This document shows, in pieces, positions 13,931 to 21,273 of a DNA stretch of 32,055 bases; the first letter of the stretch is position 1; each line of letters begins with the position of its first letter. Origin of the DNA: Streptomyces afghaniensis 772 (GTDB lineage: Bacteria; Actinomycetota; Actinomycetes; Streptomycetales; Streptomycetaceae); NCBI GenBank assembly GCA_000415505.1, contig KE354220.1, forward strand, positions 1-32,055. The letters are read 5' to 3'. Below the pieces are notes generated by a model. It made no database searches, was not told the origin of the DNA, and saw only the letters and a program-made list of their open reading frames with translations. A program made the translations under genes and the position numbers.

Positions 13931-15628
13931 CTAGTCCTCGGGCAGCTCGACCGGCGCGATGTCGTCGTAGACATCGCCGGGACCCGGGTTGGCCGGGTCG
14001 GTCGTGCCGCCGAAGTGGTGCATGACGCCCCAGACCGCGTTGAGGGCGGTCTGGACGGCGCCCTCGGCCCAGCCGGCCGTCCAGGAGATGTCGTCGCCGG
14101 CGAGGAAGATGCCGCGCTTGTCCTCGGGCAGCCGGTCCTGCATGAAGTGCGTGAACAGGCGCCGCTGGTAGCGGTAGTGGCCGGGCAGGTTGGCCTTGAA
14201 CGCGCCCATGAAGTAGGGCTCGTTCTCCCAGGAGACGGTCACCGGGTTGCCGATGATGTGCTTGCGGATGTCGACCTTGGGATAGATCTCGCCGAGCGAC
14301 TTCAGCATGACCTCCATCCGCTCGTTCGCGGACAGCGGCAGCCACTTCAGGCTGTCGTCGCACCAGGTGTAGGAGAGGCAGATGACGGCGGGCTGGTCGG
14401 GGCCGTTGTCGAGCAGGTAGGTCCCGCGCGTCATGCGGTCGGTGAGCGTCATCGACATGACGTCCCGCCCGGTCTCCTCGTCCTTGTCGAGCCAGAACGG
14501 CCGGTCGACCGGCACGAAGAGCTTGGAGCTCTCCATGTAGTGCGTGCGCTCGATGGCCGTCCAGTGGTCGATCGGGAAGAGCGAGTCGTCGCAGTCGATC
14601 TTCGACAGCAGCATCCAGGACTGGGCGGTGAAGATCGCCGCCGGGTAGGTGCGGATGTCGCCGTGCGCGTCGGTCACGGTGATGCGGTTCCCGGCGGTGC
14701 GGTGCAGGCGGGTGACGGCCGGGCGGGGGGCGCCGTTCTCGTGCAGTGTTGCGAGCGAGGTTCCGTAGGCCCAGTGGACGATCTTCTCCGGCTCGCGCTC
14801 CCAGAGGCGCAGCGGCAGTTGCTGGGAGCCGCCGACAATGCCGCGGTGGTGGTCGTCGGCCTCGGTGTAGACGACGCGGAGGATCTCCAGGATGGAGTTC
14901 GGGAAGTCGGTGTCCCAGCCGCCCGTGCCGAAGCCGACCTGGCCGAAGATCTCGCGGTGCCGGAAGGACTTGAACGCCTCGGAGTCGCAGAGGAAGCCGT
15001 AGAAGGTCTGGTTGTCGAGCTTCTCGACGAGCTTGGACCAGATCTCGCGGATGCGCGGGACGTCCCGCTCGCGCAGGGCCCGGTTCATGTCGGAGAAGTC
15101 GGCGCCCTCCTCCAGGCACCGGTTCCAGGCCTCGGCCACGTCCCGGTAGACCTGGGGCAGGTCGGCGATCGTCTCGGCGTAGTGCGACTCGCCCTTGAGG
15201 TCGACGACGGTCGACGGGGTCGTCTCCGCCAGGGGGTTGGGGAACGGCCGCGTCTCGAGGCCGACCAGGTCGATGTAGTGCTGGAGGGCGGTGGAGGACG
15301 GCGGGAAGCGCATCGCGCCCATCTCGGCGGTGAGGGAGTCGTCGCACCCCTCGAAGCCCACCGTCCGCAGCCGGCCGCCGATCTGATCGGCCTCGTACAC
15401 GACCGGCTTGAGACCCATCTTCATCAGCTCGTACGCGGCGACGATGCCGGACAGGCCGCCGCCGATGACCGCGACCTCCGTGCCGTGCTCGGTCGCGGGT
15501 ATCTGCCCGAGACCCGCCGGGTGGGCGAGGAAGTCGTCGTACGCGTACGGGAAGTCCGGGCCGAACATGGTGATCGGCGGCTGCTGCGCGTCTGCGTGCT
15601 CGACGGCGTTGGGCACGGTGGACGTCAT
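13931..15628 (-). CDS. davB: L-lysine 2-monooxygenase (flavin amine oxidase family)
   Basis: A 565-residue FAD enzyme that oxidatively decarboxylates L-lysine to 5-aminopentanamide. The N-terminal 'PITMFGPDFPYAYDDFLAHP' and the ending DNPGPGDV/NPGPGDVYDDI pattern closely recall Pseudomonas putida DavB, as do 'FGQVGFGTGGWDTDFPNS' and 'VSWENEPYFMGAFKANLPGH'. The FAD fingerprint GGGLSG is at 56-61 with E79 for the ribose, and GIFLAGDDISWTAGWAEGAV closes the FAD site. AAGGAGT stands 8 bases before the ATG. It lies 48 bp behind davA, whose product hydrolyses the amide, so the pair makes 5-aminovalerate. Tryptophan 2-monooxygenase is the main alternative, less likely given the resemblance. DavT and DavD functions are not in this window. 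Confidence 0.88.
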   Translation of the reverse strand: MTSTVPNAVEHADAQQPPITMFGPDFPYAYDDFLAHPAGLGQIPATEHGTEVAVIGGGLSGIVAAYELMKMGLKPVVYEADQIGGRLRTVGFEGCDDSLTAEMGAMRFPPSSTALQHYIDLVGLETRPFPNPLAETTPSTVVDLKGESHYAETIADLPQVYRDVAEAWNRCLEEGADFSDMNRALRERDVPRIREIWSKLVEKLDNQTFYGFLCDSEAFKSFRHREIFGQVGFGTGGWDTDFPNSILEILRVVYTEADDHHRGIVGGSQQLPLRLWEREPEKIVHWAYGTSLATLHENGAPRPAVTRLHRTAGNRITVTDAHGDIRTYPAAIFTAQSWMLLSKIDCDDSLFPIDHWTAIERTHYMESSKLFVPVDRPFWLDKDEETGRDVMSMTLTDRMTRGTYLLDNGPDQPAVICLSYTWCDDSLKWLPLSANERMEVMLKSLGEIYPKVDIRKHIIGNPVTVSWENEPYFMGAFKANLPGHYRYQRRLFTHFMQDRLPEDKRGIFLAGDDISWTAGWAEGAVQTALNAVWGVMHHFGGTTDPANPGPGDVYDDIAPVELPED

Positions 15629-15676: not shown

Positions 15677-16465
15677 TCAGACGAGCGGCCCGTACAGGCC
15701 GGGGCGCCGGTCCCGCAGATACGGGTTGGCCTCGCGCGACGCGGCGAGGAACACGGGGTCGACGTCGGCCAGGACGAGCTCCTCGGCGCGCCCGGCCCGG
15801 GTCCGGGCGACCCCGTCGGGCCCGGCCAGCGTGGACAGCCCCACGAACTCGAACTCGCCCTCCCGGCCGGCCCGGTTGACGTACGCGACGTACATCTGGT
15901 TCTCGAAGGCACGCACCGGGATCATCGACTCGGCGACGAACTGGAACGGGTGCATCTGCGCGGTCGGGACGACCAGCAGGTCGGTGCCGGCGAGGGCGTG
16001 GGCGCGGACGTTCTCCGGGAACTCGACGTCGTAGCAGATCAGGATCCCGACGCGCAGACCGTCGAGCTCCGCCTGGACGACCGGCTGGTCCCCGGGCGTG
16101 AAGTGGTCGCGCTCGAAGCAGCCGAAGAGGTGGGTCTTGCGGTAGTTGGCGAGACGGGTGCCGTCGGCGGAGATCAGCTGGGCGGAGTTGAACACGGCGT
16201 CACCGGCCCGCTCGGGGTAGCCGTAGGCGATCGCCAGTCCGTGCCTGGTCGCGGTCTCGGCGATGGCGTCCGCGCAGTCGCCGTCGGCGGGCTCGGCGAG
16301 CCGGCCGATGTCGTCGCCGATCGCGTACCCGGTCAGGAACATCTCCGGCGCGACCAGCAGCCCGGCACCCGCGGCGGCGGCCCGGCCCGCGGCCTCGTCG
16401 AGGACCTTGAGGTTCTCGACGGTGGAGCCGGGTCGGCCGGAGCTCTGGAGCAGGGCGGTGCGCAT
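15677..16465 (-). CDS. davA: 5-aminopentanamidase (carbon-nitrogen hydrolase)
   Basis: A 262-residue nitrilase-superfamily amidase. The Glu-Lys-Cys triad is E41 (VAPEMFLTGY), K110 (NYRKTHLFG) and C144 (ILICYDVEFPEN). It resembles P. putida DavA in length and in 'YGYPER' and 'NYRKTHLFG', and should turn 5-aminopentanamide into 5-aminovalerate in the cytoplasm. GAGGAA lies 6 bases before the ATG at 16465. It is the first gene of a two-gene operon with davB. About 85 bp upstream is a three-word array also found in front of the amino-acid permease, which points to shared control. On its own it would be a generic C-N hydrolase; the substrate is assigned from its partner. Confidence 0.85.
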   Translation of the reverse strand: MRTALLQSSGRPGSTVENLKVLDEAAGRAAAAGAGLLVAPEMFLTGYAIGDDIGRLAEPADGDCADAIAETATRHGLAIAYGYPERAGDAVFNSAQLISADGTRLANYRKTHLFGCFERDHFTPGDQPVVQAELDGLRVGILICYDVEFPENVRAHALAGTDLLVVPTAQMHPFQFVAESMIPVRAFENQMYVAYVNRAGREGEFEFVGLSTLAGPDGVARTRAGRAEELVLADVDPVFLAASREANPYLRDRRPGLYGPLV

Positions 16466-16549
16466 GCGTGTTCCTCACCGGGGCGCGGGGGGTTTCGGGG
16501 GCCTGATAGACGGTACGGTCGGCGGCTCCGGCCGGACAAGGAGCAGCCG

Positions 16550-16606
16550 TTGCGCGTCCGTGAGCGGATCATTGCGTTCGCCGGCGGGTCGGCGGCGATT
16601 CGTTGC
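16550..16606. promoter_or_regulatory. Three-word array upstream of davA-davB (copy A)
   Basis: On the plus strand TTGCGCGT (16550-16557), ATCATTGCGTTC (16568-16579, preceded by a shared G) and TTCGTTGC (16599-16606) lie with starts 18 and 31 bp apart. The same three words recur in the same order and orientation at 20689-20743 before the permease-lrp genes, with starts 17 and 30 bp apart. A likely binding array for the Lrp/AsnC protein encoded at 18609. Confidence 0.7.
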
Positions 16607-16764
16607 GGGCACTGACCGGTCCTTCCCTGGGCGTATCCCGCAACCGCCTTCCCCCGCCGGGCGGCGGAGGCCGGGTCCCGTCCCGGGTGCGATGTGGCGC
16701 GGGCGCGGCGACGGGACAGTGGTGAGCGTCCAGTCGACGTGCGTCACCTGCGGAAAGGACCGCC

Positions 16765-17307
16765 ATGAACCGCCGTACGAGGACCGCCTTACTCGGCTCC
16801 GCGCTGCTGCTCACCGTCGCCGCCGCGGCCGGCTCCGCCGGAGCATCCGCCCCCGACGAAAGCGGGCGTGAGGCCGCCGCGCTCACCGGCAAGGCCAAGC
16901 TGTACCGCTCGGCCGGGGACGACATCACCTTCTCCTTCGACGCGCACCTGGCCGCGAAGGACAAGGCCGATCCGATGAAGGCCACCGGCACCTTCGAGTG
17001 GAGCCACTACCTGAACGGTGAGGGCGCCAGGGCGAAGGCGCGGGTCGACTGCCTGCTGACCGGCGGGAAGGTGGCCGTCGTCTCCGGTGTGATCACCGAC
17101 TCCGACCTGCCGGGCGCCGAGGGCAAGCGGGTCGGCATCACCGTCCACGATGTCGGCCGGCACGACCGCCTCGGCTACAGCTGGGCGTCCACGGGCAGCC
17201 CCGTCGAAACGAAGGAGCTGCCCAAGTGCGTGGGCTCCGCCCCCTTCGAGAAGGTCAGGAAGGGGACGGGCGACTTCACGGTCGTGCCGTGGCGGCCCGC
17301 GCTCTAG
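16765..17307 (+). CDS. Secreted protein of unknown function
   Basis: A 180-residue protein with a clear signal peptide: basic start MNRRTRTALLG, hydrophobic core to about residue 22, then AGSAGASA with a cleavage site near residue 28. The mature part is polar and probably beta-rich (AKLYRSAGDDITFSFDAHLA and TFEWSHYLNG). It has two Cys residues, in 'VDCLL' and 'PKCVG', that could form a disulfide. No enzyme motif is seen. GGAAAGGA stands 6 bases before the ATG. It is transcribed away from davA and tail-to-tail with the MFS gene, overlapping it by 32 bp. It is unrelated in strand and type to the lysine genes around it. Confidence 0.85.
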   Translation: MNRRTRTALLGSALLLTVAAAAGSAGASAPDESGREAAALTGKAKLYRSAGDDITFSFDAHLAAKDKADPMKATGTFEWSHYLNGEGARAKARVDCLLTGGKVAVVSGVITDSDLPGAEGKRVGITVHDVGRHDRLGYSWASTGSPVETKELPKCVGSAPFEKVRKGTGDFTVVPWRPAL

Positions 17308-18472
17308 CCAGCGCCAGCGCCGTCACCGCATACGGAATCGCCAGCACCGCGAAGACGGTGCTGTGCGCCAGGTCCGTGCCGAGCAGCGCGTACATGCCGA
17401 ACGTGGCGACCGTCGCCAGCTCGGTGCCCAGGCTCGCGACGGAGGTGAGCGTGGCCCGGCGGGACTCGTCGATACGGTGCTGGAGGCGGACGTCGGCCAG
17501 CACCTCCGCCAGCTGGAACCCGGCGAAGGCGAGGCTCACGAGGGCGATACCGGCCAGTGAGCGGGACGCGGCGCCCACGGCCAGGGCGAGTGCGGCGCCC
17601 GCGAGCAGCGTGGCGAGACCGGCCGGGCCGAGGCGTTCGGCCGGTCCGGCCAGGAGGCTGCCGACGGTGACGCCCGCCCAGATCAGCATGATCAGGTAGG
17701 GCACCGTCGCTTCGGCGACGCCGATGTCCCGGACCAGCAGCGGGGTGTACTCGTCGAGCGCGCCCCACACCGCGGCCACGGCCGGGACCAGCAGCAGGGC
17801 GCCGCGCACCGCACGGTCCCCGCGGACCTGGGCGAGCCCGGTCCGCAGGGTCGTCGCCCAGCTGTCGCCTGCGGTGTCCGGCCGCACCCGGTGCTCGGGG
17901 AACCGGGTCGCGGTGAGGGCGGTCAGCACACAGGCCAGGAAGCTGGCGGCACCGACCGCCGCGTAGCCGCCCTGGGCGAAGACGGGCCCCGCGAGGCCGA
18001 GCGAGACCACGGTGCCCGCCAGCCGCGCGGCCCGTGCCCGGCCCATGACCCGTGCGTATCGGTCGGCAGCGCCGAGGTGGTCCAGTTCGTCGTACACCAG
18101 CGCCTCCAGCGCGCCGGAGCCGAGCGCCCCGCCCGCGCCCCACAGGACGAAGCCGGCCGCGAAGGCCCCGTACGACGGGACGGCCACCCACAGCGCGAAG
18201 CCGGCGGCGGTGAGCAATGGGCCGATCCACAGCAGCCTGCGGCGCGACACGGCGTCGGCCCAGGCGCCGGAAGGGACTTCCAGCGCCACCGAGGTGATCG
18301 ACCACAGAGCGAACAGGGAGGAGATCTGCCAGAGCGACATGCCGGTGTCGGCGAACAGCAGCGCGTACACCGGGTAGAGCAGGACGAAATCGTCGAGGAA
18401 CGCGTAGCCGTACAGCGTGGTCGTCAGCCGCCGGACGCCGGTGGCGGGCACGCGTGCAGGTGAGAGTGTCAT
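17276..18472 (-). CDS. MFS transporter
   Basis: A 398-residue membrane protein with about 12 hydrophobic segments. The stretch 'EVPSGAWADAVSRRRLLW' between segments 2 and 3 is the MFS G-x-x-x-D-x-x-x-R-R signature. It is a drug or metabolite exporter type; the substrate is unknown. I take the ATG at 18472 because GGGAAGG lies about 6 bases before it, the protein then begins MTLSPARVPATG close to segment 1, and the longer open frame adds only a non-conserved-looking tail. It lies between the lysine catabolic operon and the lrp gene, so a role in amino-acid export is possible but unsupported. Confidence 0.88.
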   Translation of the reverse strand: MTLSPARVPATGVRRLTTTLYGYAFLDDFVLLYPVYALLFADTGMSLWQISSLFALWSITSVALEVPSGAWADAVSRRRLLWIGPLLTAAGFALWVAVPSYGAFAAGFVLWGAGGALGSGALEALVYDELDHLGAADRYARVMGRARAARLAGTVVSLGLAGPVFAQGGYAAVGAASFLACVLTALTATRFPEHRVRPDTAGDSWATTLRTGLAQVRGDRAVRGALLLVPAVAAVWGALDEYTPLLVRDIGVAEATVPYLIMLIWAGVTVGSLLAGPAERLGPAGLATLLAGAALALAVGAASRSLAGIALVSLAFAGFQLAEVLADVRLQHRIDESRRATLTSVASLGTELATVATFGMYALLGTDLAHSTVFAVLAIPYAVTALALARARAATARP

Positions 18473-18608
18473 GAGGCCTTCCCGCAGGGACGGATCGGAT
18501 GCCGGAGGTACGGCGTCCGAGGCGGCCCTCGGGAGGCGCGGCTGGTGGATCAATGTCGCCAGGTCATGACACCGATGCTAGGCGCCGACCGGCGGATCGT
18601 CCTGTGGA

Positions 18609-19061
18609 TTACGTGGGCGAACCCGACGAGAAGCGCCGCAGCAGCGGCGACAGCACGAGTACGGACTTGGTCCGCTCGACGAACGGCTCCCCGGCGATCC
18701 GCTCCAGGACCCGTTCGAAGTGCCGCATGTCGGAGGCGAAGACCTGGGCGATCGCGTCCGCGTCCCCGGTGACGGTGGACGCGGCCACGACCTCCTGGTA
18801 GCGCTCCAGGCCCCGCTGGATGGTCTCCGGGGAGGTGTTGCCCCGGCAGTAGATCTCGACGAACCCCTCGGTCTGCCAGCCGAGGGCGCCCGGGTCCACC
18901 CGGACGGTGAAGCCGGTGATGGCTCCGGTGGCCCGCAGCCGGTCCACGCGCCGTTTCACGGCGGGCGCGGACAGGCCGACGATGTGGCCGATGTCGGCGT
19001 AGGAGCGGCGGGCGTCCTCGGCGAGGGCGTGCACGATGCGTTCGTCGAGATCGTTCAGCAC
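18609..19061 (-). CDS. Lrp/AsnC-family transcriptional regulator
   Basis: A 150-residue feast/famine regulator. The N-terminal HTH (about 5-55) contains 'YADIGHIVGLSAPAVKRRVD'. The RAM ligand-binding domain follows (about 62-140), with 'VVAASTVTGDADAIAQVFAS' where the amino-acid effector of the family usually binds at dimer contacts. GTG 19061 is taken because the family start LNDLDERIVHAL follows at once; the frame is open 30 codons further into the permease. It lies 10 bp after the permease stop on the same strand, so the two form one operon. The array upstream of that operon recurs before davA-davB, making both the likely targets and lysine the likely effector. Effector and targets are inference. 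Confidence 0.9.
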   Translation of the reverse strand: MLNDLDERIVHALAEDARRSYADIGHIVGLSAPAVKRRVDRLRATGAITGFTVRVDPGALGWQTEGFVEIYCRGNTSPETIQRGLERYQEVVAASTVTGDADAIAQVFASDMRHFERVLERIAGEPFVERTKSVLVLSPLLRRFSSGSPT

Positions 19062-19071
19062 AGTGGGTCGG

Positions 19072-20538
19072 TCACTTTTCGGATGGTGCGAGTCGGGAAC
19101 GGCGATAGCCGTACACGAAGTAGAACACGAGCCCGGCGGCCATCCAGACACCGAAGACGACCCAGGTCACGGTCGACAGGCTGCCCATCATCCACAGGCA
19201 GAGGGCGAAGCCCAGCGCGGGCAGGACCGGGGAGAGCGGCACCCGGAAGGTGCGGGGCATGTCCGGCCGGGTCCGGCGCAGCACCACGACGGCCACGTTG
19301 ACCAGCGCGAAGGCGAACAGGGTGCCGATGCTGGTGGCGTCGGCGAGCTGCCCGAGCGGGATCGCGGCGGCCAGCACACCGCAGAACAGGGAGACGATCA
19401 GGGTGTTGGCGCGGGGCGTGCCGCTCTTCGGGTGGACCCTGGCGAACACCTTCGGCACCAGGCCGTCGCGGGACATGGCGAACAGGATGCGGGTCTGGCC
19501 GTACAGCACGGTCAGCACCACGCTCGCGATGGCGATGACGGCGCAGAACGCCAGCAGCGTGCCCCAGAAGGTCTGCCCGGTGACCTCGCGCATGATCTGG
19601 GCGAGGGCGGCCTCGGAGTCGGTGAAGTTCTCCCAGGGCTTGGCGCCGACCGCGACGGCGGCGACGAGGACGTACAGCGCCGTGACGATGACCAGCGACA
19701 GCATGATCGCGCGCGGCAGGTCGCGCTGGGCGTTCTTGGCCTCCTCGCCGGCGGTGGAGGCGGCGTCGAAGCCGATGTAGGAGAAGAACAGCGTCGCCCC
19801 GGCGGCGCTGACGCCCGCCATGCCCAGCGGCATGAAGTTCTCGTAGTTGCCGGAGCGGAAGCCCTGGACGCCGATGGCGCAGAAGAGCACCAGCGCGCCG
19901 ATCTTCACGATGACCATGACGGTGTTGGCCCGGGCGGACTCGCGGGCGCCGCCCAGCAGGAACGCCATCGCGAGCAGCACGACGATCAGCGCGGGGAGGT
20001 TGAACACGCCGCCGTCGCCGGGCGGGGCGGACAGGGCGGCCGGGATGGTGACGCCGACGGTCCCGTCGAGCAGTTCGTTGAGGTACTCGCCCCAGCCGAC
20101 CGCGACGGCGGCGACGGACACGCCGTACTCCAGGACCAGGCACCAGCCACAGATCCAGGCGATCAGTTCGCCCATCGTTGCGTACGCATACGAGTACGAG
20201 GAGCCGGAGACCGGGATGGTGCCCGCCAGCTCGGCGTAGGACAGGGCCGAGAACAGGGCGGTCAGACCGGCTATGACGAAGGCGAGCGTGACGGCCGGTC
20301 CCGCCTTGGGGACGGCCTCGCCGAGCACGACGAAGATGCCGGTGCCGAGGGTGGCACCGATGCTGATCATGGTGAGCTGCCACAGGCCGAGGGAGCGCCG
20401 CAGCGAGCCCCCCTCGCCCTGGCCACCCTCCGCGACCAGGTTCTCCACCGGCTTGCGACGCATGAGGCGCGCGCCGACGCCCGGGGACGGCGGGGCGGTC
20501 TGACTACTGCTGTGCGGGGGTGCGCCTTGGTCGAGCAC
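19072..20538 (-). CDS. Amino-acid permease, CAT/YfnA type (probable lysine or basic amino-acid uptake)
   Basis: A 488-residue APC-superfamily transporter with about 12 membrane segments after a charged N-terminus (to about residue 52). Family landmarks are 'SIGATLGTGIFVVLGEAV' in segment 1 (the G-x-G-I-F substrate loop), 'SYSYAYATMGELIAWICG', 'FFSYIGFDAASTAGEEAKN' and FAMSRDGLVPKVF. These are typical of the cationic amino-acid transporter branch. GTG 20538 follows AAGGAG by about 8 bases. It is the first gene of the permease-lrp operon. Basic amino acids are favoured by family and by the operator shared with the lysine-degrading davA-davB genes. Other substrates of the branch are possible. 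Confidence 0.9.
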   Translation of the reverse strand: MLDQGAPPHSSSQTAPPSPGVGARLMRRKPVENLVAEGGQGEGGSLRRSLGLWQLTMISIGATLGTGIFVVLGEAVPKAGPAVTLAFVIAGLTALFSALSYAELAGTIPVSGSSYSYAYATMGELIAWICGWCLVLEYGVSVAAVAVGWGEYLNELLDGTVGVTIPAALSAPPGDGGVFNLPALIVVLLAMAFLLGGARESARANTVMVIVKIGALVLFCAIGVQGFRSGNYENFMPLGMAGVSAAGATLFFSYIGFDAASTAGEEAKNAQRDLPRAIMLSLVIVTALYVLVAAVAVGAKPWENFTDSEAALAQIMREVTGQTFWGTLLAFCAVIAIASVVLTVLYGQTRILFAMSRDGLVPKVFARVHPKSGTPRANTLIVSLFCGVLAAAIPLGQLADATSIGTLFAFALVNVAVVVLRRTRPDMPRTFRVPLSPVLPALGFALCLWMMGSLSTVTWVVFGVWMAAGLVFYFVYGYRRSRLAPSEK

Positions 20539-20688
20539 GCGCTGACTCCTTCGTCACTGCCGGTCTTGGGCGGCGGGAACCGGCAGCGTCCCGCCCGACA
20601 GCCGGGACCCACCGAGCGGGGTCCCCGCCACGCCACGTACGAGGCGACAGCCTACGAGGAGCGGCGTTGCCCGTGTAATGCAGCAACC

Positions 20689-20743
20689 TTGCGCGTGCCC
20701 GCAAGATCATTGCGTTCCTCGGGACTGGCCGGAGGTTCGTTGC
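20689..20743. promoter_or_regulatory. Three-word array upstream of permease-lrp (copy B)
   Basis: TTGCGCGT (20689-20696), ATCATTGCGTTC (20706-20717, again preceded by G) and TTCGTTGC (20736-20743) repeat copy A at 16550-16606. Extra TTGC words flank it (GCGTTGCCC near 20665, CCGTTGCAC near 20758). The array lies 151-205 bp before the permease start and most of it is inside the 3' end of the GNAT gene. Confidence 0.7.
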
Positions 20744-21273
20744 ACATCCGCGTTCGTCCGTTGCACGGGACTTGCTCGGACCAGCTCTTTCACCAGGAAC
20801 GTGAGCTCCTCGACACACTCGTGCGTGACACCGTCGTGGCCCTCGTAGGACCAGCGGCCGAGGTAGGTGGCGAGGGGCCGGTAGCCGAGCCTGGCATAGA
20901 GGGCGGCGGCGCGCGGGTTGTCGTCGGCGACGCCCAGGCCGATGGCCGTGCGGCCCCGCTCCCGCGCGCGTTCCTCGGCGGCGCGGACCAGGGCGCTGCC
21001 GATGCCGCGCGAGCGCAGCGGCTCGGGCCACACGGTCAGCGCGTTGATCTCCGGGCAGCCGGGCCGTGCCGCCCGTACGGCCGCGTCGTCGCAGCCGCCC
21101 CAGCGCAGCTCCGTGTGCCCGACCGGACGTCCGTCGAGCCAGGCGACGAGGTACGTGCTCTGCCCCCGCTCCTGGCGTTCGAAGCGGCGCGCGTGGAACG
21201 AGGTGGCGCCCGGCGAGCCGATGTACTGGTCGAGCAGCGCCACGTCGGCGGCCCGGCAGACGGTGATCTCCAT
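20707..21273 (-). CDS. GNAT-family N-acetyltransferase
   Basis: A 188-residue acetyl-CoA-dependent acyltransferase. The acetyl-CoA pyrophosphate loop is 'LRSRGIGSALVRAAEERA' (about residues 88-105, R/Q-x-x-G-x-G/A form). The following strand and helix 'AIGLGVADDNPRAAALYARLGYRP' are typical of GNAT motif B. The acceptor is unknown. It is the only GNAT in the window. The last 15 or so residues are polar and look unconstrained, and they are encoded by the operator-like array of the downstream permease operon, so this tail may be a by-product of that DNA. It follows the guaB1 terminator and is co-directional with the permease genes, separated by 168 bp. Confidence 0.88.
   Translation of the reverse strand: MEITVCRAADVALLDQYIGSPGATSFHARRFERQERGQSTYLVAWLDGRPVGHTELRWGGCDDAAVRAARPGCPEINALTVWPEPLRSRGIGSALVRAAEERARERGRTAIGLGVADDNPRAAALYARLGYRPLATYLGRWSYEGHDGVTHECVEELTFLVKELVRASPVQRTNADVQRTSGQSRGTQ

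What the first reader, a model, noticed from the sequence alone, without database searches (positions are those of the whole stretch)
16550..20743. Identical three-word operator array before davA-davB and before permease-lrp: a candidate local lysine regulon
The plus-strand words TTGCGCGT, GATCATTGCGTTC and TTCGTTGC occur in that order at 16550-16606 and again at 20689-20743. Starts are 18 and 31 bp apart in one, 17 and 30 in the other. Both arrays have the same orientation towards minus-strand genes. The 13-mer is identical in otherwise unrelated intergenic DNA. The genes behind them are the lysine 2-monooxygenase operon and a basic amino-acid permease co-transcribed with an Lrp/AsnC protein. 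Lrp-family proteins bind multiple phased half-sites and respond to amino acids. Inference: this Lrp protein couples lysine uptake and breakdown through these arrays. I know of no description of such a DavAB regulator in Streptomyces.
Basis: partly seen in the sequence, partly recalled or inferred. Interest (0 to 1): 0.8.

Follow-up and report, generated by a model that had tools for sequence, protein, structure and literature searches.

The report
Conserved Lrp operators for basic-amino-acid breakdown
Two Streptomyces operons, one for importing and one for breaking down a basic amino acid, share a three-part DNA switch that has been kept at fixed spacing across most sampled Streptomyces and also precedes arginine-breakdown genes in other actinomycetes, most likely read by the small Lrp-type regulator encoded beside it.

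Summary
The 13-mer occurs only twice in the 9.85-Mb genome, both times here. A three-site pattern built from the arrays is found in 187 of 199 Streptomyces genomes, with one hit for the reversed control. With a stricter pattern, 137 of 142 arrays lie before davA or before the permease-lrp operon; five were not settled. Spacing is fixed, and site 3 lies exactly 14 bp before a -35-like hexamer in both promoters. In one genome where davA lies 3.8 Mb from permease-lrp, both keep arrays; in four without davA the array precedes davB.

Outside Streptomyces, 31 of 35 arrays sit before a dimethylargininase/arginine-dihydrolase gene, 29 of them with an Lrp homologue within 523 bp. The DNA-reading helix core (VKRRVD) is identical in all 137 aligned Lrps, while the rest differs.

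So Lrp control of both operons is well supported, though by inference. "Lysine regulon" is only partly supported: relatives of the system serve arginine genes, and DavB's pocket fits lysine or arginine. Binding, ligand and sign of regulation are untested. New variant of a known kind.

The parts
16550..16606 (-). davA operator array, 57 bp: site 1 GCAACGAA 16599-16606, site 2 ACGCAATGATC 16567-16577, site 3 CGCAA 16550-16554
   Evidence: Direct reading and strand check. Same offsets 0/29/52 in 46 of 47 orthologous davA promoters. 53 of 142 strict hits in 199 genomes lie 80-119 bp before davA.
16534..16539 (-). -35-like hexamer TTGTCC of davA
   Evidence: 14 bp from the start of site-3 GCAA; TTG at exactly +14 in 46 of 46 aligned promoters, hexamer TTGTCC in 41 of 46. 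No transcription start was measured.
16510..16515 (-). -10-like hexamer TACCGT of davA
   Evidence: 18-bp spacer; TACCGT in 31 and TACCTT in 10 of 46 promoters.
15677..16465 (-). davA: carbon-nitrogen hydrolase (amide hydrolase), 262 aa
   Evidence: PF00795, E 2.7e-49. Match at E<=1e-60 in 185 of 199 Streptomyces genomes.
13931..15628 (-). davB: flavin amino-acid oxidase/monooxygenase, 565 aa
   Evidence: PF01593. Best solved relative is Pseudomonas sp. AIU 813 L-amino acid oxidase/monooxygenase, 3we0, 803.8 bits.
20689..20743 (-). permease-lrp operator array, 55 bp: site 1 GCAACGAA 20736-20743, site 2 ACGCAATGATC 20705-20715, site 3 CGCAA 20689-20693. Further half-site-like GCAACGGA 20757-20764 and GCAACG 20665-20670
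   Evidence: Offsets 0/28/50 in 57 of 59 orthologous permease promoters; the two outer words also show in the consensus. 81 of 142 strict hits lie 1.55-2.17 kb before lrp and three more were seen before the permease.
20673..20678 (-). -35-like hexamer TTACAC of permease-lrp
   Evidence: 14 bp from the start of site-3 GCAA; TT at +14 in 57 of 57 aligned promoters, the rest of the hexamer variable.
20649..20654 (-). -10-like hexamer TAGGCT of permease-lrp
   Evidence: 18-bp spacer; TAGGGT in 36 and TAGGCT in 14 of 57 promoters.
19072..20538 (-). APC-family amino acid permease, 488 aa
   Evidence: TIGR00909 618.1 bits, above its cut-off 556.8. A 48-49% identical permease lies near the array-bearing ddah gene in 5 of 35 non-Streptomyces loci (L172, L175, L246, L247, L248).
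18609..19061 (-). Lrp/AsnC-family regulator, about 150 aa, likely GTG start at 19061, 10 bp after the permease stop
   Evidence: PF13404 and PF01037 above cut-offs. Found in 191 of 199 Streptomyces genomes at E<=1e-50. Recognition-helix core VKRRVD invariant in 137 homologues.

Best explanation
The two arrays are operators of one dedicated regulator, the Lrp/AsnC protein at 18609-19061. Each operator is three direct half-sites about 2 and 3 helical turns apart on one face of the DNA, joined at a fixed 14-bp distance to the -35 element. The likely mechanism is that an Lrp multimer wraps or bridges the three half-sites, reads the intracellular level of a basic amino acid (arginine, lysine or both), and recruits or releases RNA polymerase at both promoters. 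That couples uptake (the permease), its own synthesis (autoregulation) and breakdown (oxidative decarboxylation by DavB, then amide hydrolysis by DavA). The module is a Streptomyces branch of a wider actinomycete Lrp system attached to arginine-breakdown genes. Shown: conservation, spacing, promoter-like geometry, target restriction, Lrp linkage. Inferred: Lrp binding, the ligand, and activation rather than repression; activation is favoured because the operator lies upstream of the -35 and the comparable roc cluster of M. tuberculosis is arginine-induced.
For: 187 of 199 Streptomyces genomes carry the pattern, control one. 134 of 142 strict hits are at davA or permease-lrp by coordinates and three of the other eight by fetched sequence. 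Natural tests: in G012 davA lies 3.8 Mb from permease-lrp and both keep arrays; in G002, G021, G094 and G187, with no davA match, the array is 158, 171, 316 and 585 bp before davB, with TTGTCC still at +14. In other actinomycetes an Lrp homologue lies within 523 bp of the array in 29 of 35 hits. VKRRVD identical in 137 of 137 Lrps. Lrp and davA co-occur: 184 with both, 7 with neither, 8 with one only, of 199. The Streptomyces ddah operon, where it is next to its own Lrp paralogue (53-57% identical), keeps GCAA-N10-TTG in 9 of 11 loci, one of which (L183) was picked because it had the array. Arginine induces the M. tuberculosis roc cluster more than 20-fold and its Lrp, Rv2324, 6-fold (PMC4569260, passages).
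Against: No binding or expression data for this Lrp. Two of the 8 genomes without the Lrp still carry one array: G120's lies beside the ddah-Lrp paralogue, G028's davA lies at a contig end. Six genomes with the Lrp have no pattern match. In the eight loci where an aldehyde dehydrogenase stands before lrp instead of the permease, no array was found before it, so autoregulation there is lost or different. In G012 the relocated davA has no davB in the fetched 9 kb. Eleven of 20 fetched Streptomyces ddah loci have neither an Lrp nor GCAA-N10-TTG in the fetched stretch. Outside Streptomyces TTG is at +14 in only 7 of 22 re-found loci and at +18 in 8. Co-occurrence counts are not corrected for shared ancestry. 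An arginine microarray study in S. coelicolor names no dav gene among responders in the sections I read (PMC3293853, sections 6 and 13; its gene tables not seen).
Confidence: 0.78

Rival explanations
1. As above, but the signal and substrate are arginine: DavB makes 4-guanidinobutyramide and DavA hydrolyses it, so this is an arginine regulon that happens to look like DavAB.
For: The operator and Lrp relatives elsewhere sit on dimethylargininase/arginine-dihydrolase genes (31 of 35), with an ornithine transaminase next in 26 of those 31. The dav-Lrp clade is sister to ddah-linked Lrps of family f19, support 96/90. The crystallised relative of DavB binds Lys, Orn and Arg through Asp238 (PMC5832979, abstract and section 4), and that residue is kept. 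In S. coelicolor arginine raises gabT independently of ArgR (PMC3293853, section 6), as a route through 4-guanidinobutyrate and GABA would predict.
Against: PMC5082578 (passage) states that the S. lividans genome has no arginine monooxygenase and that it needs fed 4-guanidinobutyramide; whether S. lividans has this davB was not tested. Streptomyces has a separate ddah-rocD operon with its own Lrp. Positions such as 96 and 107 differ between the dav-type and ddah-type Lrps, so the ligand may have shifted.
Confidence: 0.45
2. One reading: a lysine regulon. The dav-Lrp is a paralogue whose ligand shifted to lysine, and DavAB makes 5-aminovalerate.
For: DavB's closest solved relative is a lysine oxidase/monooxygenase. 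Outside the DNA-reading helix the Lrp has diverged from the ddah paralogue. A second Lrp is already linked to the arginine-type genes in 9 of 20 fetched Streptomyces ddah loci.
Against: No lysine-specific gene was identified in the array set. Targets in other actinomycetes are arginine genes. Three pocket residues of DavB differ from the lysine enzyme (Cys254 to Ala, Gln258 to His, Ala515 to Gly).
Confidence: 0.35
3. A different, unlinked transcription factor binds the arrays and the Lrp is a passenger.
For: No binding data. G028 keeps a davA array without a detected Lrp.
Against: An Lrp homologue is within 523 bp of the array in 29 of 35 non-Streptomyces cases with quite different target genes; its recognition helix is invariant. 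G028's davA lies at a contig end in an assembly of about 1300 contigs.
Confidence: 0.08
4. Chance repeat or a local DNA duplication with no function.
For: 13-mers often recur in this GC-rich window (226 distinct).
Against: Genus-wide conservation with near-absent controls, fixed offset to the -35-like hexamer that was not used for the alignment, and retention where davA has moved or is missing.
Confidence: 0.01

Closest known systems
M. tuberculosis roc cluster with Rv2324 (Lrp/AsnC), Rv2323c, rocD, rocE (PMC4569260)
   Same: Lrp-type regulator beside a basic-amino-acid catabolic operon with a permease. Unnamed actinomycete loci whose ddah gene passes the cut-off of NF045659 (a model whose name points to the Mtb dimethylargininase; 5 of 5 tested) carry the array next to ddah and lrp.
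   Different: Catabolic route is hydrolase plus transaminase, not a flavin monooxygenase plus amidase. In most of those loci lrp is divergent from ddah; in Streptomyces it follows the permease. Whether Mtb itself carries the array was not tested by name.
Pseudomonas davBA (lysine 2-monooxygenase and 5-aminovaleramidase)
   Same: Homologous flavoenzyme, and an amide hydrolase partner of the type expected.
   Different: No regulator of this type is known to me there (recalled). Substrate in Streptomyces is unproven and three first-shell residues differ.
E. coli Lrp and AsnC (feast/famine regulators)
   Same: AsnC-type HTH and ligand-binding domain; multiple phased half-sites (general Lrp property, recalled).
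   Different: Not global: at strict stringency there are at most two hits per Streptomyces genome. Specific operator words and a rigid tie to the -35.
ArgR of S. coelicolor (PMC3293853)
   Same: Arginine-responsive regulator in Streptomyces.
   Different: Binds 18-bp ARG boxes (passage read); the GCAA half-sites here are different.

Membership tests
Lrp/AsnC (feast/famine) regulators | AsnC-type HTH plus Lrp/AsnC ligand-binding domain | tested here: met
   PF13404 57.3 bits (cut-off 27), PF01037 53.4 bits (cut-off 25).
Lrp/AsnC (feast/famine) regulators | Operators made of several half-sites in helical phase | tested here: met
   GCAA words 21-22 and 30-31 bp apart, offsets fixed in 46 of 47 and 57 of 59 promoters.
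Lrp/AsnC (feast/famine) regulators | Sequence-specific binding to these operators, modulated by an amino acid | not testable with these tools
   Needs protein-DNA assays.
Actinomycete arginine (ddah-rocD) Lrp system | Same operator words and spacing | tested here: met
   31 of 35 non-Streptomyces array hits lie at most 196 bp before the matched start of a ddah gene.
Actinomycete arginine (ddah-rocD) Lrp system | Same recognition helix in the Lrp | tested here: met
   VKRRVD in 137 of 137 aligned Lrps.
Actinomycete arginine (ddah-rocD) Lrp system | Operator stands before ddah-rocD | tested here: not met
   Here it stands before davA and the permease; the ddah operon of this genome has a separate Lrp paralogue. 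So it works like that system but is a branch of it, not the same operon.
DavAB lysine 2-monooxygenase pathway | Flavin monooxygenase with acidic residue for the basic side chain, plus adjacent amide hydrolase | tested here: met
   Asp238 equivalent kept in the alignment to 3we0; PF00795 neighbour.
DavAB lysine 2-monooxygenase pathway | Lysine is the physiological substrate | not testable with these tools
   Lys, Orn and Arg all bind the solved relative (PMC5832979).

The most novel reading that the evidence does not exclude
An actinomycete-wide operator-promoter module, three GCAA half-sites tied to the -35 region and read by an Lrp with an invariant recognition helix, originally served arginine breakdown by dihydrolase and ornithine transaminase. 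In Streptomyces a paralogous Lrp changed its ligand domain but kept its DNA-reading helix, and was wired to a different chemistry (flavin monooxygenase plus amidase) and its own permease, giving two parallel basic-amino-acid circuits with closely similar operators in one cell.
Probability: 0.5. Interest if true: 0.62.

Novelty: new variant of a known kind. Interest (0 to 1): 0.52.

Why it matters
It gives a concrete operator, promoter and regulator for basic-amino-acid uptake and breakdown in nearly all sampled Streptomyces, where the arginine and lysine catabolic routes are poorly defined: a 2012 S. coelicolor study (PMC3293853, section 13) reports only two arginine catabolic genes identified (both arginine deiminase) and no standard arginase. 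It ties that circuit to the arginine-induced roc type of cluster in other actinomycetes and makes the question 'what does DavAB degrade in Streptomyces?' directly testable. The paralogue pair is also a clean case for studying how an Lrp may change ligand while keeping its DNA target.

Tried and rejected
Chance or local duplication: rejected on conservation and controls. A global regulator: rejected, since at most two hits per genome were found at strict stringency and 137 of 142 belong to the two operons. The plus-strand gene 16765-17307 as the array's target: unlikely, because it has no match in many relatives that keep the davA array. Extra Streptomyces dimethylargininase paralogues as further targets: the 30 fetched top-scoring loci had no lrp or rocD match beside them; the only array score of 18 or more (L212) is on the other strand. 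A second set of 20 Streptomyces ddah loci was fetched: 9 have an Lrp beside ddah, 7 of these with GCAA-N10-TTG (not L232, L234); the other 11 have neither. Adding L185 (own genome) and L183 (picked because it has an array) gives 9 of 11 Lrp-linked loci. Only the site-3-to-TTG step was scored there; sites 1 and 2 were judged by eye and are looser (CGCAGC-like). Non-Streptomyces promoters: the regex re-found 22 of 32 loci; TTG at +14 in 7, at +18 in 8, so the 14-bp rule is firm for Streptomyces dav and permease promoters only. Literature searches (open-licence PMC only, listings with abstract starts) showed no description of this operator or of a DavAB regulator in Streptomyces; the locus tags used were recalled and gave nothing. 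The second davA-like copies L142 and L143 (49-50% identical) were not scanned.
Full report
OBSERVATION. The own genome (9.85 Mb, 1724 contigs) has GATCATTGCGTTC exactly twice, both here, and the three-site pattern exactly twice. Word starts are 17/32 and 16/31 bp apart, not 18/31 and 17/30. The second array runs into the 3' end of an acetyltransferase ORF whose stop is at 20707-20709. A repeated 13-mer is not rare in this GC-rich window (226 distinct), so the case rests on genome-wide uniqueness and conservation.

CONSERVATION IN STREPTOMYCES. The strict pattern gave 142 hits in 107 of 199 genomes, none for the reversed control. Matched against listed coordinates of davA and lrp, 53 hits (all 57 bp) are 80-119 bp before davA and 81 hits (78 of 55 bp, two of 48, one of 56) are 1552-2165 bp before lrp, that is before the permease. 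Eight could not be classed that way, because coordinates were not listed, the contig ended, or lrp lay further away. Three of these eight (G099, G018, G035) are before the permease in the fetched stretches (L090, L091, L108); five remain open. A looser fixed-spacing pattern hits 187 of 199, with one control hit; its hit list was cut off and was not classed. In the 80 named lrp loci kept (547 encoded a relative), 59 had a complete permease start and 47 a complete davA start with 400 bp upstream; the scan found offsets 0/28/50 before 57 of the 59 (two 0/29/51) and 0/29/52 before 46 of the 47 (one 0/27/50). In 28 davA loci from 30 genomes that had no hit (30 of 92 such genomes), 25 have 0/29/52 (L137 and L140 weak), one has 0/29/51, L141 has none, and L136 scores 19 only at other offsets and nearer the gene, which I judged not to be the array. 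The same scan before lrp itself in 17 of these loci gave best scores of 12-16, against 17-22 for the 0/29/52 sites.

GEOMETRY. Site columns average 1.80 (davA) and 1.89 bits (permease), spacers 1.07 and 0.93, the 20 bp upstream 0.48 and 1.05. The rows were anchored on the site words, so the site figures lean upward; the promoter-like columns were not used for anchoring. In both promoters site-3 GCAA starts 14 bp before a -35-like hexamer (TTG in 46 of 46 davA, TT in 57 of 57 permease promoters), and an 18-bp spacer leads to TACCGT/TACCTT (41 of 46) or TAGGGT/TAGGCT (50 of 57). The permease consensus shows two further GCAA words. Promoters are inferred from sequence; no transcription start was measured.

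NATURAL EXPERIMENTS. In G012 davA is at 8.92 Mb and permease-lrp at 5.12 Mb; each keeps its array. The davA there has no davB in the fetched 9 kb. In G002, G021, G094 and G187 no davA was found (E<=1e-60; none at 1e-3 in the fetched stretches), and the array, with TTGTCC at +14, is 158, 171, 316 and 585 bp before the matched davB start. In eight fetched loci (L144-L148, L150-L152) an aldehyde dehydrogenase stands before lrp where the permease would be, with no array before it (the family was checked for L144 only). Lrp and davA co-occur: 184 with both, 7 with neither, 1 davA only, 7 lrp only, of 199; Fisher p 1.2e-8, not corrected for ancestry. Of the 8 genomes without the Lrp, 6 have no array and 2 have one; of the 191 with it, 6 have none.

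OTHER ACTINOMYCETES. In 394 class genomes (40 of them same-genus) the loose pattern hit 73, 38 of them same-genus, with one control hit. I fetched all 35 non-Streptomyces hits (19, 16). 31 lie at most 196 bp before the matched start of a dimethylargininase/arginine-dihydrolase gene on the same strand; 29 of these have an Lrp homologue within 523 bp and 26 a rocD match downstream. One (L179) is before a davA-davB pair with an Lrp 2.7 kb away. Three (L178, L250, L251) have nothing relevant. Of ten proteins scanned from these loci, five ddah proteins all pass the NF045659 cut-off and four transaminases all pass the TIGR01885 ornithine transaminase cut-off; the tenth is unrelated. The window's own genome has ddah and rocD matches and an Lrp 56% identical to the dav-Lrp beside ddah, with the same 14-bp step from GCAA to TTG. 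That step is present in 9 of 11 Streptomyces loci where ddah has an Lrp beside it, and absent, together with the Lrp, in the 11 other fetched loci.

THE REGULATOR. Tree of 42 Lrps: the 17 Streptomyces dav-Lrps form one clade (100/97) sister to five f19 ddah-linked Lrps (96/90), and the 10 Streptomyces ddah-Lrps form another (100/100). In 137 aligned Lrps (98 dav, 11 Streptomyces ddah, 28 other) residues V36-K37-R38-R39-V40-D41 never vary, while S96, Q107, G67, A124 and G125, among others, mark the dav type. That the region around 96-107 holds the effector is recalled from Lrp structures, not tested here.

THE ENZYMES. DavB aligns with 3we0 over residues 12-562. Using the residue list of PMC5832979 (abstract and section 4 read) and a 20-residue numbering offset in the chain that I inferred from matching residues, Arg102, Trp235, Asp238, Tyr416, Trp418, Phe473 and Trp516 are kept, and Cys254, Gln258 and Ala515 become Ala, His and Gly. 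So a basic amino acid is the expected substrate; lysine versus arginine is open.

LITERATURE. PMC4569260 (abstract and passages): arginine induces the roc cluster (rocE, rocD, Rv2323c, Rv2319c) more than 20-fold and Rv2324 6-fold in M. tuberculosis. PMC4866775 (passages): Rv2324 mutations in persister mutants; no operator mentioned in those passages. PMC3293853 (abstract, sections 6 and 13, passages): in S. coelicolor arginine raises an amidinotransferase gene (SCO1222) and gabT independently of ArgR; that SCO1222 is the ddah gene is my guess. PMC5082578 (passages): S. lividans said to lack arginine monooxygenase. PMC10322714 (passages): arginine-derived starter units.

VERDICT. The arrays are real, conserved regulatory elements, and the linked Lrp is by far the best candidate reader. 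The system is a branch of an Lrp family attached elsewhere to arginine genes; whether the Streptomyces branch senses and degrades arginine, lysine or both is undecided.

Noticed in passing
L144-L148, L150-L152 (for example L144:9394-10851 +): In eight fetched Streptomyces loci an aldehyde dehydrogenase stands directly before lrp-davA-davB where the permease would be (for L144 the best NCBIfam matches include semialdehyde dehydrogenases, none over cut-off), a plausible later step of the same pathway; no array was found before it.
   Followed up: partly
L160-L163: Four genomes keep davB and its array but have no davA match, so either another amidase serves or the enzyme works as an oxidase.
   Followed up: partly
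L158:3646-4577 (-): In G012 davA with its array lies 3.8 Mb from permease-lrp and has no davB in the fetched 9 kb.
   Followed up: partly
window 13931-15628 (-): Compared with the Pseudomonas lysine oxidase/monooxygenase, DavB has Ala, His and Gly where Cys254, Gln258 and Ala515 line the pocket, which could change the oxidase/monooxygenase balance or widen the pocket.
   Followed up: no
L186-L215: Many Streptomyces genomes carry more than one dimethylargininase-family match (up to four); the 30 fetched top-scoring ones have no lrp or rocD match beside them and no array; their role is unknown.
   Followed up: partly
window 20757-20764 and 20665-20670 (-): Two extra GCAA words flank the permease array and show in the consensus of orthologous promoters, so the permease operator may have five half-sites where davA has three.
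   Followed up: partly
L179:2394-5126 (-): A davA-davB pair with the array in another actinomycete family (f17), with an Lrp 61% identical 2.7 kb away, suggests that the dav circuit is older than Streptomyces or was transferred.
   Followed up: partly
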